64,000 nt of DNA, from contig JAHJTV010000025.1 of NCBI GenBank assembly GCA_018829445.1, positions 1 through 64,000 of the forward strand. Reading direction: 5' to 3'. A program made the position numbers and the translations under genes. Source of the stretch: a bacterium. Its GTDB lineage: Bacteria > SAR324 > XYD2-FULL-50-16. The notes beneath the pieces are model-generated. The model was not told the origin of the DNA. It was given only the letters and a program-made list of their open reading frames with translations, and did not search any database. This document shows, one piece after another, positions 36,138 through 41,706 of the stretch. Every line of letters starts with the position of its first letter. Position 1 is the first letter of the stretch.

Positions 36138-36962
36138 CTATTTTCCGCAAACTTTACAGGTTACCAGTGGATCATTCGATTCGGTCAAATCAAGATCAAT
36201 AATCTCACCGGGAACAACCATCTTCTCAAGAAACTCAAATACTAATCGAAGAATATTAATCTGGCGAAACGCCTGACCTGGGAATGAGAAGGGATGCCCA
36301 AGGGGAAAACCGGTATAGATCGAACGGGGTGGTTTTATTCTTTTAGAGATCTCTTTTGACAACGTAATCGATATGGTAACAATTCCAGCCTCTTCTATTT
36401 TCCGCTGTATCAATCCAACGGATTGATTACATAGCCCTCAGGCAGGGGATAGGACAACTATATCGACCTGTTCCTCTTTCAGACGCTTAATCAGGAGGGG
36501 GATGGAATGGTTTCGCAAAACATCCAGCTGATCCCCTAAAATATGCCCCATGAATGAAAAGTGGTATTGACTCAGCTCTCCAATTTCCCGGTTTCCCTGT
36601 AAATGCTGAACCCGCTCCAACGGAAAAATGATATTAATATCCTTGTCAGCATTCCTATGGTCATAATAATTGTGGGTAATCTTCAGTTCATTTATGGGAG
36701 TGTCGAAAGGAATTTCCCTGAAACCGGCATCTCCATTGGGATCAACCATGTCGAACGGTTCCTGTTTCTTCAGATGCACTCCTCCTGTTGTTACCAGTGC
36801 CAGTTTGGACTCGGCAACCGGCTTTTCCAGATTAACCCAGGGGACATCATTAAAAGCCAACGTTTCACTTTTCTTTTCCCAGGCTGTAAAAAGGGCAGGG
36901 TGACGGAGCAGGATTTTGGCAATCAGCTTATCCTTAGCCTGTCTGATCTTTGTTATCATCAT
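36138..36962 (-). CDS. GrdB/PrdB-related selenoprotein with in-frame UGA (Sec175)
   Basis: Two collinear ORFs in the same frame (36962-36438 and 36413-36138) are joined by a single UGA at 36440-36438, read VVLSPA-U-GLCNQSVG. The 274-residue product resembles the glycine/sarcosine/betaine/D-proline reductase selenoprotein B family: ALVTTGGVHLKKQEPFD, an NYYDHRNADKDINIIFPLERV block, VDIVVLSPA before the Sec, and IEEAGIVTISITLS plus CKVCG after it. Sec175-G-L-Cys178 is a redox UxxC. A hairpin of SECIS type follows the UGA. A true stop and two separate genes is the alternative, but homology continues across the codon. Function is probably a thiol-linked reductase, exact substrate unknown. Confidence 0.85.
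36406..36431 (-). other. SECIS-like hairpin after the UGA codon
   Basis: On the minus strand TGT-A-ATCAATCC pairs with GGATTGAT-ACA around a GTT loop (8 bp perfect, plus 3 bp beyond a single bulged base). 18 nt separate the UGA from the apical loop, inside the range reported for bacterial SECIS elements. The loop begins with G, as is common in bacterial SECIS. Confidence 0.7.
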
Positions 36963-38552: not shown

Positions 38553-40112
38553 CTACATCACCAGATAACCTTCGGCCAATTGCTGGTAATCCTTCAGTTG
38601 CTGTTTCTTCCATCGTTTCCCAACGTCCAGTTCCTTCGCCATAATATCAGCCACAGCTGGAGCCATTTCCATACTGGCTTTGGCATCAAGCAGTAAAGCC
38701 CTTGTTCGACGAGACAGAAAGTCCTCGAGGGTTCTTGCCATTTCATATCTTGCAGCCCAAACCACTTCCCCGGCTAACGTTGGAAATTTGGGGGAAAGCC
38801 GTTGAGCGTAGTCTTTTTTCTCTCTTATTAAATCCTGTATTTTGGGAGCATCGGATCCATACAGAGCCAGATCTCCAAATTTTTCCGGATTTTTGTGGTA
38901 ACCATGAATATGCAGGGTTTTTGTAATACATTCTTTCTCATCCAGGCGTGCGATCATCGCTGCCTGTTTGACTGTATCCTCGGCCATTCTCCGGTAGGTT
39001 GTCCATTTACCCCCCGCAATCGTCACCAGACCTGAACGGGAAATGGTAAGTGAATGATCTCTTGACAAAGCAGCCGTATTCGCTTCCTCCTTTGCCTGGA
39101 TTAAAGGTCTAAGACCAGCAAAGGCACTTAAGACATCTTTCCGCATCGGGTCTTTTGTTAAATATCGGGCAGCGTGGTTCAACAAAAACTGTAATTCCTC
39201 TTCAATAGGTCGGGGCTCCAATACCGCTGTTTTTACAGCTGTATCAGTCGTACCGACAATAACCTTGTTGTGCCATGGGATGGCAAACAAAACTCTGCCA
39301 TCATCTGTATGCGGTACCATAATGGCGCTGTCACCAGGAAGAAAGGACCTTTCAAGAACAATATGAACTCCCTGGCTGGGGCTGATCAAATTTGGCGTTT
39401 GAGCATCATCCATTCGGCGAATGGAATCGCTGAAGACGCCAGTAGCATTAATTACGACCTTGGCATCAATTTCATATTCTGTTCCGGATTCCTTATCAAC
39501 AGCGATCACACCGCAAACCTGGTCGTTTCTTTTACACAAACGGGTTACCTCAAAATAGTTCAACAGTGTCGCCCCTTGGTCAACAGCTGTTTGAGCCATA
39601 TTGACCACCAGGCGCGAGTCATCAAACTGCCCATCGTGATAAATCACTCCACCCTTGAGTCCTTCTCTTTCAACCGTAGGAATATGATCGATTGTTTTCT
39701 TTTTGGAAAGATTCTTTGAAGTTCCGAATCCTCTTTTTCCTGCCAGCATATCGTATACTTTCAGTCCGATACCGTAAAACGGCCCTTCCCACCAGTCATA
39801 GTTTGGAACAATAAACAAGAGATTGTGTACCAGATGCGGTGCATTCTGTAACAGCAATCCCCGCTCTTCAAGGGCTTCCAGTACCAGTGAAATATTTCCC
39901 TGCTGAAGATAACGAACCCCTCCATGAATCAACTTAGTGCTCCGACTCGATGTCCCCTTGGCAAAGTCACTTTGCTCCAGCAGTAAAACCTGGTAGCCAC
40001 GCGAGGCAGCGTCAATTGCGACACCGACCCCAGTCGCACCACCACCGATGACAATCATATCCCATTGCCCGGAGTTGTCTTCCAGGCGTGATAGCATTTC
40101 ATTACGTTTCAT
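38553..40112 (-). CDS. glpD: Glycerol-3-phosphate dehydrogenase (FAD, GlpD/GlpA type)
   Basis: About 519 residues from ATG 40112, which has GAGG upstream; the longer frame from 40169 overlaps hgcB. The dinucleotide motif is IVIGGGATGVGVAIDAASRG, followed by LLEQSDFAKGTSSRSTKLIH and GGVRYLQQGN, the substrate and FAD region of the family. The C-terminal DAO_C domain (EVVWAARYEMARTLEDFLSR) is complete. It oxidises glycerol-3-phosphate to dihydroxyacetone phosphate and passes electrons to quinone. It is 47 nt downstream of hgcB on the same strand and may be cotranscribed. Confidence 0.94.
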   Translation of the reverse strand: MKRNEMLSRLEDNSGQWDMIVIGGGATGVGVAIDAASRGYQVLLLEQSDFAKGTSSRSTKLIHGGVRYLQQGNISLVLEALEERGLLLQNAPHLVHNLLFIVPNYDWWEGPFYGIGLKVYDMLAGKRGFGTSKNLSKKKTIDHIPTVEREGLKGGVIYHDGQFDDSRLVVNMAQTAVDQGATLLNYFEVTRLCKRNDQVCGVIAVDKESGTEYEIDAKVVINATGVFSDSIRRMDDAQTPNLISPSQGVHIVLERSFLPGDSAIMVPHTDDGRVLFAIPWHNKVIVGTTDTAVKTAVLEPRPIEEELQFLLNHAARYLTKDPMRKDVLSAFAGLRPLIQAKEEANTAALSRDHSLTISRSGLVTIAGGKWTTYRRMAEDTVKQAAMIARLDEKECITKTLHIHGYHKNPEKFGDLALYGSDAPKIQDLIREKKDYAQRLSPKFPTLAGEVVWAARYEMARTLEDFLSRRTRALLLDAKASMEMAPAVADIMAKELDVGKRWKKQQLKDYQQLAEGYLVM

Positions 40113-40159: not shown

Positions 40160-40447
40160 TCAACAACAATCACAGCCACAGGAAGCGTTCTCTTTTCCCT
40201 TTATCCAGGAACTCAAAATGTAACTTGCGCATCCCACACCGGGCGTAACCTGAATAGCGTTGTCTTTACAATTCAGCACACAAGCTCCGCATTCCATGCA
40301 TCCATTTAAGTCAATAATTGTTGCTTTTTTTTCTGTCATACCAAGCACCCCATGTGGGCAAACTTCCAGGCAGATCTTACATCCGGTGCACTTTTTTATG
40401 TCCAGAGTAAGGGTTGATACATTTTTTAAATAAAAAAAAGACTTCAT
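40160..40447 (-). CDS. hgcB: HgcB, ferredoxin partner of mercury methylation
   Basis: 95 residues from ATG 40447. Two 4Fe-4S motifs are visible: C20-x2-C23-x2-C26-x3-C30-P and C50-x2-C53-x2-C56-x3-C60. A further conserved Cys73 (VGCASYIL) and a C-terminal vicinal pair C94-C95 (GCDCC) match the positions known to be essential in Desulfovibrio/Pseudodesulfovibrio HgcB. This start gives exactly that numbering. HgcB reduces the corrinoid of HgcA and probably handles Hg(II) through the C-terminal thiols. The frame could extend to 40537 and overlap hgcA. It lies directly after hgcA. Confidence 0.95.
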   Translation of the reverse strand: MKSFFYLKNVSTLTLDIKKCTGCKICLEVCPHGVLGMTEKKATIIDLNGCMECGACVLNCKDNAIQVTPGVGCASYILSSWIKGKENASCGCDCC

Positions 40448-40512
40448 ACGATTCATTAAATTGAAATAGTTGACAGTTCTCAGCAAACAACCTGGCAAGT
40501 AAATTATTAATA

Positions 40513-41706
40513 TTATAGAAAAGGTGAGATCATCCACAAAGCCAATGCTGTTAATACTCCAAATACCTGCACGGGAATTCCGATTCTCATCTCTTTTTCT
40601 ACGCCGGAAGGCGAAGTATAAGGTGTTGAACCGGTGAAATTCATGGCGAGAAAAGAACTTAACATGACACTGAATAGAAGCAAGGCAACTGTTTCATAAA
40701 GAGATAAATGAACAAAAACTGTATTAACAGATAACACTCCTGTAATACTTCCTATCCCGATCCCTTTTAAGAAAAACGCCCGAAAAGGGATCCAGGGAAG
40801 AACCAACGGTGTGAGCACCGTACCTGACAGAATTCCGATCAAGCCTGCCATCAAAACATTAGTTCCCCTGGCAAATAAGGCATCTATCGAGAACAGATCC
40901 GGTCCGATACCCGACAGAAGGCCCAAAAAAACCAGAAGAAGACCTGCCGGTTTTAGCAGGTTCTTAATCTCAACGGGAATCAGCACCATTCGATCAATAA
41001 AAGTAAACCTGATTCGCCTCATATCCGGTCCGGTTTTTCCGTGGGATGCAAGATAAGGTTTTATATCTGATGCGCGAATCGGCCCCCAACATACCTTAAA
41101 TCCGCTCTCCTCTTTCACCAAATGTCCCGATACTCCTGTGGCAGATAATTGAGGCAAAATAAGCTTACGGTGACTCACAATTTTGGCCAGTTCGACCGCT
41201 TTGATTTGATGTAACAATTCATTTGTAGCAAAGGTTCCTTTTCCGGCCGCACACCATACATTCACACCTTTGGTGTCTAAAACCAGAATCCAGGCATCAA
41301 CGTCACTTAATTCCTTGCGCAGCGCATCAAAACTTAACTTGTAATTTGCCGTTACCAGAACAGGAGATTTATCATCAGGAGATCCTACACAATACAGCCC
41401 GGGATCAATGGCATAGCAGTCTCGATTGATCCCCAATCTTGTCAGAATGCTCCCCCAAACGTCTTGATAGGATAATACGGTGTCCACCTTAGTTACCTCA
41501 CCAACTGCAGTGTGGTGCTTCCCCAGGATTTTTTTTACATCCAACGCGGTCTCAGAATGCAATTGATTGTCTAAAGCCGCACCACAACATTTATTTGACG
41601 GGCTTACGTCTGTTCCATTTTGTTGAGAACATTCGCATTCCAACTTTTCTGTTTTCTTTTCGGATTTAGACTGGCAACAGTCAGTATTCTTGGTTAGTTT
41701 TTCCAT
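40513..41706 (-). CDS. hgcA: HgcA, corrinoid mercury methyltransferase
   Basis: 397 residues. The diagnostic cap-helix motif is N149-V-W-C152-A-A-G-K, whose Cys ligates cobalt of the corrinoid, within a CdhD-like domain (residues 60-225; YQDVWGSILTRLGINRDCY, DPGLYCVGSPDDKSPVLVTA). The C-terminal half has about five membrane helices (252-272, 282-300, 308-325, 330-352, 375-395). The 45-residue N-terminal tail is Cys-rich (C10, C11, C24, C26, C40, C41). The protein methylates Hg(II) using a methyl group from the one-carbon pool. The corrinoid motif makes confusion with CdhD unlikely. It precedes hgcB. Confidence 0.96.
   Translation of the reverse strand: MEKLTKNTDCCQSKSEKKTEKLECECSQQNGTDVSPSNKCCGAALDNQLHSETALDVKKILGKHHTAVGEVTKVDTVLSYQDVWGSILTRLGINRDCYAIDPGLYCVGSPDDKSPVLVTANYKLSFDALRKELSDVDAWILVLDTKGVNVWCAAGKGTFATNELLHQIKAVELAKIVSHRKLILPQLSATGVSGHLVKEESGFKVCWGPIRASDIKPYLASHGKTGPDMRRIRFTFIDRMVLIPVEIKNLLKPAGLLLVFLGLLSGIGPDLFSIDALFARGTNVLMAGLIGILSGTVLTPLVLPWIPFRAFFLKGIGIGSITGVLSVNTVFVHLSLYETVALLLFSVMLSSFLAMNFTGSTPYTSPSGVEKEMRIGIPVQVFGVLTALALWMISPFL

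What the first reader, a model, noticed from the sequence alone, without database searches (positions are those of the whole stretch)
40160..41706. Complete hgcA-hgcB mercury-methylation pair
Seen: HgcA has the cap-helix motif N-V-W-C-A-A-G-K around Cys152 and a five-helix membrane half; HgcB has two 4Fe-4S motifs, Cys73 and a C-terminal C94-C95. Established: this pair is necessary and sufficient in known methylators for making methylmercury. Inference: the organism can methylate mercury. The pair is followed at 47 nt by glycerol-3-phosphate dehydrogenase, an unusual neighbour.
Basis: partly seen in the sequence, partly recalled or inferred. Interest (0 to 1): 0.8.

Follow-up and report, generated by a model that had tools for sequence, protein, structure and literature searches.

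The report
SAR324 mercury-methylation genes with thiol tail
A bacterium placed in the SAR324 group carries a complete hgcA-hgcB gene pair, which likely lets it turn mercury into toxic methylmercury, and its HgcA has an extra tail with paired cysteines that is predicted to grab mercury ions.

Summary
In detail: 40160-41706 (minus strand) holds a complete hgcA-hgcB pair. Both proteins pass NCBI's curated cut-offs (424.5 against 275 bits; 110.7 against 99), with cap cysteine Cys152, five membrane helices, two ferredoxin motifs, Cys73 and Cys94-Cys95. The host shares a genus with a named SAR324 genome. HgcA passes the cut-off in 3 of 52 genomes held of that phylum, all in this genus. SAR324 hgcA is already in print (PMC8163782), so this is a new member of a known kind. 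The tree puts it inside the Thermodesulfobacteriota HgcAs, suggesting an old transfer. glpD follows hgcB in one congener too, but in another it sits there without hgcAB, so it is probably a bystander. What deserves attention is HgcA's tail: about 58 extra residues with vicinal cysteine pairs, predicted disordered and likely a Hg(II)-binding arm. In relatives one cysteine of a pair is often a UGA (selenocysteine) codon: 34 of 43 loci from one Desulfovibrio-type family. Selenoprotein HgcA is known. In 12 of those 34 the next start codon gives the published Cys93 numbering, so the laboratory enzyme may be described without its tail. Mercury methylation by this organism is untested.

The parts
40513..41706 (-). 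hgcA, 397 aa, corrinoid protein of mercury methylation
   Evidence: NF040863 424.5 bits, cut-off 275; Foldseek best hit is the deposited HgcAB model 9a0b_A, 51% identity
41533..41706 (-). N-terminal tail of HgcA, residues 1-58: C10C11, C24xC26, C40C41; predicted disordered; function inferred
   Evidence: Cys positions; pLDDT under 50 for residues 1-58
41239..41262 (-). cap-helix motif NVWCAAGK, residues 149-156, Cys152
   Evidence: N149-A154 and K156 invariant in 20 aligned HgcAs, G155 nearly so
40519..40983 (-). five-helix membrane half of HgcA, residues 242-396
   Evidence: AlphaFold2 model; hydropathy
40160..40447 (-). hgcB, 95 aa, dicluster ferredoxin with Cys73 and C-terminal C94-C95
   Evidence: NF040864 110.7 bits, cut-off 99; cysteines
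38553..40112 (-). glpD-like glycerol-3-phosphate dehydrogenase/oxidase, 47 nt after hgcB; likely a bystander
   Evidence: PF01266 + PF16901, below the cut-offs of NCBI's GlpD equivalog models; no terminator-like site on this strand between hgcB and glpD; same gene without hgcAB in G004

Best explanation
The window carries a complete HgcA-HgcB pair that would likely methylate Hg(II) to methylmercury at the membrane, and its HgcA has an extra cysteine-paired N-terminal tail predicted to act as a second Hg(II)-holding arm. From work on other species: HgcB is thought to feed electrons to the corrinoid of HgcA, the cap cysteine (here Cys152) is predicted to ligate cobalt, S-adenosylmethionine is the methyl donor, and HgcB's Cys73 and C-terminal cysteine pair are needed for full activity. 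Inferred for this organism: the tail's vicinal thiols (C10C11, C40C41) bind Hg(II) and pass it to HgcB's C94-C95 or to the corrinoid. The pair was probably acquired by an ancestor within this SAR324 genus from a Thermodesulfobacteriota-like source, came to lie upstream of a resident glpD, and was then inherited.
For: Curated HgcA and HgcB models passed. The residues named as important in PMC7305189 (passages read) have counterparts: Cys152, HgcB Cys73, C94-C95. Structure match to the HgcAB model, then to CFeSP 2ycl. The genome has two other, stronger matches to the CdhD family on contig C78, so HgcA is not its only such protein. Tail: at least one CC in 113 of the 120 top homologues, at least two in 95 (picked by similarity to the query, so biased). 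Among 79 named loci, 17 flagged Cys-UGA or UGA-Cys (16 after I drop L029, whose hit lies upstream of the gene), 40 with CC only, 22 with neither. UGA at one Cys of the pair in separate lineages argues that the pair is chemically active. Tree: window, P0002, P0003, P0006 and G005 form one clade (98/89) inside Thermodesulfobacteriota HgcAs. HgcA over the cut-off in 3 of 52 SAR324-phylum genomes, all in the window's genus.
Against: No assay exists for this organism. In G005, the congener that shares the locus, hgcB has an in-frame TAG and no PylS over the cut-off was found in 10 genomes of the family, so the pair may be decaying there. Twenty-two of 79 named loci show neither CC nor Cys-UGA, so the tail thiols cannot be essential for catalysis in the family. 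The tail's role rests on its cysteines alone; its start codons in relatives are not proven. The cap segment 149-158 of the AlphaFold2 model has pLDDT under 50, and 9a0b is itself a computed model. Transfer is inferred from tree and distribution; the family's genomes held are 68-98% complete. G004's HgcA is of another lineage, so 3 of 3 in the genus is not one inheritance.
Confidence: 0.85

Rival explanations
1. The tail has no mercury role: its cysteines protect or reduce the corrinoid or the cap cysteine, or they are drift in a disordered stretch.
For: The tail is predicted disordered, varies in length, and 22 of 79 named loci lack both CC and Cys-UGA.
Against: Vicinal pairs recur in 113 of 120 homologues, and UGA replaces one Cys at different pairs in separate lineages, which drift would not favour.
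Confidence: 0.3
2. hgcAB and glpD form a functional unit, with glycerol-3-phosphate oxidation supplying electrons to HgcB.
For: Same strand, 47 nt apart, no terminator-like site between; the order is kept in G005.
Against: G004 keeps the same glpD (77% identity) at the same place with no hgcAB or remnant. No named relative's locus has it: 0 of 79. Named GlpD homologues at 67-70% identity come from several other phyla.
Confidence: 0.08
3. The pair is a pseudogene or a binning error in a mixed MAG rather than a working SAR324 locus.
For: The genome has 5.35% estimated contamination. G005's hgcB carries an in-frame TAG.
Against: Both genes are full-length open frames here. G005 shares glpD-hgcB-hgcA-NadE, and G004 shares the flanking genes at 47-84% protein identity, so the contig belongs to the genus. 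GC of hgcA is 43.6% against 43.1% for the window.
Confidence: 0.06

Closest known systems
HgcAB of Pseudodesulfovibrio mercurii ND132 (PMC7305189, PMC11588087; passages read)
   Same: Corrinoid domain with cap Cys, five-helix membrane domain, HgcB with two 4Fe-4S sites, Cys73, Cys94-Cys95; 51% identity to the deposited model
   Different: Window HgcA has 59 more residues before the cap cysteine (152 against 93), holding the cysteine pairs; the ND132 protein as numbered in print has no room for them
SAR324 hgcA of Saanich Inlet MAGs (PMC8163782; passages read)
   Same: Same group; described there as a separate HgcA clade; one of those MAGs is 7.85 Mb, like the window's 7.67 Mb genome
   Different: Only 2 of the 8 MAGs had a contiguous hgcB; here the pair is complete. 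Sequences of those MAGs were not compared here
Selenoprotein HgcA (CU) and HgcB (GVGU) listed in PMC13188914 from Haft and Gwadz 2023 (table passage read; the 2023 paper is not held)
   Same: The HgcA motif CU fits the tail pair seen here in relatives
   Different: The window's tail cysteines are all Cys codons; no in-frame UGA

Membership tests
HgcA | Curated equivalog model NF040863 passed | tested here: met
   424.5 bits against 275
HgcA | Cap-helix motif with strictly conserved Cys | tested here: met
   NVWCAAGK, Cys152
HgcA | C-terminal domain of five membrane helices | tested here: met
   AlphaFold2 model, hydropathy
HgcA | Corrinoid binding and methyl transfer to Hg(II) | not testable with these tools
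   needs biochemistry
HgcB | Curated equivalog model NF040864 passed | tested here: met
   110.7 bits against 99
HgcB | Two 4Fe-4S motifs, Cys73, C-terminal Cys pair | tested here: met
   the second motif lacks the Pro after its last Cys
CFeSP gamma subunit (PRK04165) | Passes NF003195 cut-off | tested here: not met
   86.1 bits against 306
HgcAB-like fusion protein NF043039 | HgcA and HgcB halves in one chain over cut-off 285 | tested here: not met
   199.1 and 59.4 bits; two separate genes
Selenoprotein form of HgcA | In-frame UGA at a Cys of the tail pair | tested here: not met
   Window codons for Cys10, 11, 40 and 41 are TGT or TGC

The most novel reading that the evidence does not exclude
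HgcA's true N-terminus is a soft-metal arm of vicinal thiols or thiol-selenol pairs that captures Hg(II) for methylation, kept as cysteines in this SAR324 lineage and as selenocysteine in most Desulfovibrio-type methylators, and it is missing from the enzyme everyone has studied because its start was called just downstream of the UGA.
Probability: 0.35. Interest if true: 0.8.

Novelty: new member of a known kind. Interest (0 to 1): 0.42.

Why it matters
[quoted passage not shown] The tail matters more: how Hg(II) reaches the corrinoid is open, and a recurring thiol or selenol arm on HgcA, seemingly absent from the laboratory enzyme as numbered, makes that question testable.

Tried and rejected
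glpD as a functional partner: rejected, because G004 has glpD at the same place without hgcAB or any remnant.

Pyrrolysine at the TAG of G005's hgcB: no PylS over the cut-off in 10 of 10 family genomes (8 of 10 have weak matches below it), so the TAG is taken as a stop.

RNA elements and promoters: no Rfam match at gathering score in the window. Promoter-like matches were little above shuffles (14 found, mean 9.8, sd 3.5), so none is claimed.

SECIS: RNAalifold on the 14 PCUGP loci gave no consensus pairs, perhaps because the stems shift position. The fold of the G005 stretch was no better than shuffles (z 0.01). A simple stem-and-GG-loop rule, set after I had seen these sequences, found a 7-pair stem after the G005 UGA; 3 of 769 TGAs in L012 reach 7 pairs, this one included. 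By that rule 8 of the 16 Cys-UGA loci reach 5 pairs or more and 8 do not, and the window's own selenoprotein-B UGA reaches 3. A hint only.

G004's HgcA is a different lineage on another contig. A neighbouring protein there is 57% identical to a G000 protein, which does not settle whether the contig is native.

One search lost strand handling for some loci, so its counts (28/2/13) are wrong; one search replaces it.

Full report
Observation. The span 40160-41706 on the minus strand contains hgcA (41706..40513, 397 aa) and hgcB (40447..40160, 95 aa), with 65 nt between them; glpD starts 47 nt after hgcB. The second ferredoxin motif lacks its usual proline.

Identity. HgcA scores 424.5 bits against its curated model (cut-off 275) and HgcB 110.7 (cut-off 99). 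Against the acetyl-CoA pathway gamma subunit HgcA scores 86.1 (cut-off 306), and against the HgcAB-like fusion 199.1 (cut-off 285). Foldseek ranks the deposited HgcAB model first (51% identity) and CFeSP next. The same genome has two other, stronger matches to the CdhD family on contig C78.

Host. G005, which the tool calls the same genus, has hgcA on a contig of 233,644 nt. The named scan returned JANQGX010000027.1, 233,644 nt, 'SAR324 cluster bacterium isolate PL23b_bin.69', and 5,000 bases compared are identical. So the window's genus lies in SAR324 as far as that record's name is right. HgcA is over the cut-off in 3 of 52 genomes held of that phylum, all three in this genus. SAR324 hgcA has been reported from Saanich Inlet: eight MAGs, a contiguous hgcB in two (PMC8163782, passages read). 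A search for SAR324 with hgcA in the held library listed four papers; I read passages in three.

Origin. A first tree held 98 HgcAs (79 named loci, G004, G005, the window and 16 of the 119 other homologues). A careful tree held 58; 40 rows were dropped by hand for redundancy, short length or long and unstable branches. The window, P0002, P0003, P0006 and G005 form one clade (98/89; 95 in the first tree) inside HgcAs of Thermodesulfobacteriota. This placement plus restriction to one genus suggests an old transfer into SAR324. G004, also same genus, has a different HgcA that groups with Planctomycetota, KSB1 and Aminicenantes sequences, on a contig whose nativeness is unsettled.

Locus. Gene names not (ThiF/MoeB, selenoprotein B, RND) are recognised by eye. 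Window and G005 share the ThiF-like gene (69% identity), glpD (76%), hgcB (63%), hgcA (51%), NadE (74%) and a small gene (61%) in matching order. G004's contig C497 shares the ThiF-like gene (71%), the UGA-split selenoprotein-B-like gene (54% and 69%), the ECF sigma gene (57%), the next gene (47%), glpD (77%) and the TauE gene (84%). Between glpD and TauE it has about 1 kb with no hgcA, hgcB or NadE and no remnant by tblastn. So glpD is a resident that happens to lie downstream. None of 79 named relatives' loci has a GlpD match in its flank (flanks up to 4 kb, several cut short).

Tail. The cap cysteine lies at 152 here and at 93 in ND132 as numbered in print (PMC7305189). The difference is a tail with C10C11, C24xC26 and C40C41, predicted disordered. 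At least one CC lies in the tail of 113 of 120 top homologues, two or more in 95 (chosen by similarity to the query). In the 79 named loci, 17 were flagged Cys-UGA or UGA-Cys; L029's hit lies upstream of the gene and I drop it; 40 have CC only, 22 neither. These counts read the open frame upstream without proof of the start. Fourteen Cys-UGA loci form one clade (PCUGP), and two Desulfuromonas-type loci have it at the first pair (GCUPP). G005 has seven CC pairs and then UGA-Cys; no ATG, GTG or TTG lies in frame for the next 108 nt. selB and tRNA-Sec are over the cut-off in 10 of 10 genomes of the family. Selenoprotein HgcA (CU) and HgcB (GVGU) are listed in PMC13188914 from Haft and Gwadz 2023, and PMC11588087 mentions them. 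The 2023 paper is not held, so I cannot say what it states about the tail.

Wider lead. In the family of the Pseudodesulfovibrio MAG L077, 55 of 288 genomes have HgcA over the cut-off. I read 43 of those loci: 34 have a Cys-UGA pair upstream, 7 only CC, 2 neither. In 12 of the 34 the first start codon after the UGA gives Cys93; in seven of these (L115, L146, L149, L150, L152, L153, L156) T60, T66, V91 and A153 also fit the ND132 numbering of PMC7305189. Of the other 22, 21 give positions from 69 to 153 and one has no start in range. The Cys93 start is a GTG at a recurring Val, so agreement is suggestive, not proof; ND132 itself was not found. Searches for HgcA with 'N-terminal extension' (1 paper, unrelated by title), with 'cysteine-rich' (10 listed, none on the tail by title and abstract start) and for five terms together (none) gave no paper on the tail.

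Mechanism. From passages read: HgcB Cys73 and 94/95 matter (PMC7305189), and S-adenosylmethionine is the methyl donor (PMC11588087). PMC7305189 proposes that C94-C95 acquire Hg(II) from an unknown source. I infer that the HgcA tail is a second such arm. Vicinal thiols are known Hg(II) ligands, and UGA at one Cys in separate lineages points to a chemically active pair. Against it: members without tail thiols exist, so it is accessory at most.

Verdict. The finding is real and its reading sound, but hgcAB in SAR324 is known. The tail, and the chance that the reference enzyme is described without it, is the part worth following.

Noticed in passing
window 36138-36962 (-): A selenoprotein-B (GrdB-type, name recalled) like gene split by an in-frame TGA at 36438-36440 (LSPA-U-GLC); the same TGA-split gene lies at the same place in G004 (L112:6761-7582). 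A sign that the host decodes UGA as Sec.
   Followed up: partly
L004:931-2481 (G005): The congener's HgcA tail has seven CC pairs in imperfect repeats, then UGA-Cys, followed by a stem with a GGUCA loop: a metallothionein-like, possibly Sec-bearing tail.
   Followed up: partly
L004:2633-2635 (G005): hgcB of the congener has an in-frame TAG just after CPH in the first ferredoxin motif; decay, assembly error or suppression cannot be told apart.
   Followed up: partly
L114-L156: 34 of 43 Desulfovibrio-type loci have Cys-UGA upstream of the corrinoid domain; in 12 the next start codon gives the ND132 Cys93 numbering.
   Followed up: partly
L029, L033, L034, L039, L043-L046, L049-L051, L053, L055, L056, L060, L065, L070, L071, L074, L082: HgcB with UGA at the Cys73 position (GVGU) in 20 of 68 loci where HgcB was found (81 looked at), exactly one clade of 20 in the tree. 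None has a genuine Cys-UGA HgcA tail; of the 16 Cys-UGA HgcA loci HgcB was found in 8, all GVGC. Perhaps one selenium per pair suffices.
   Followed up: partly
L006 / L013 (G004:C424): A second, distant HgcA lineage in the same genus, its frame overlapping the end of an RND-exporter-like gene (name by eye); its HgcB lacks C-terminal cysteines.
   Followed up: partly
L019, core of hgcA: In-frame TGA at a position that is not Cys in relatives: a reminder that single stops in MAGs can be errors or decay.
   Followed up: no
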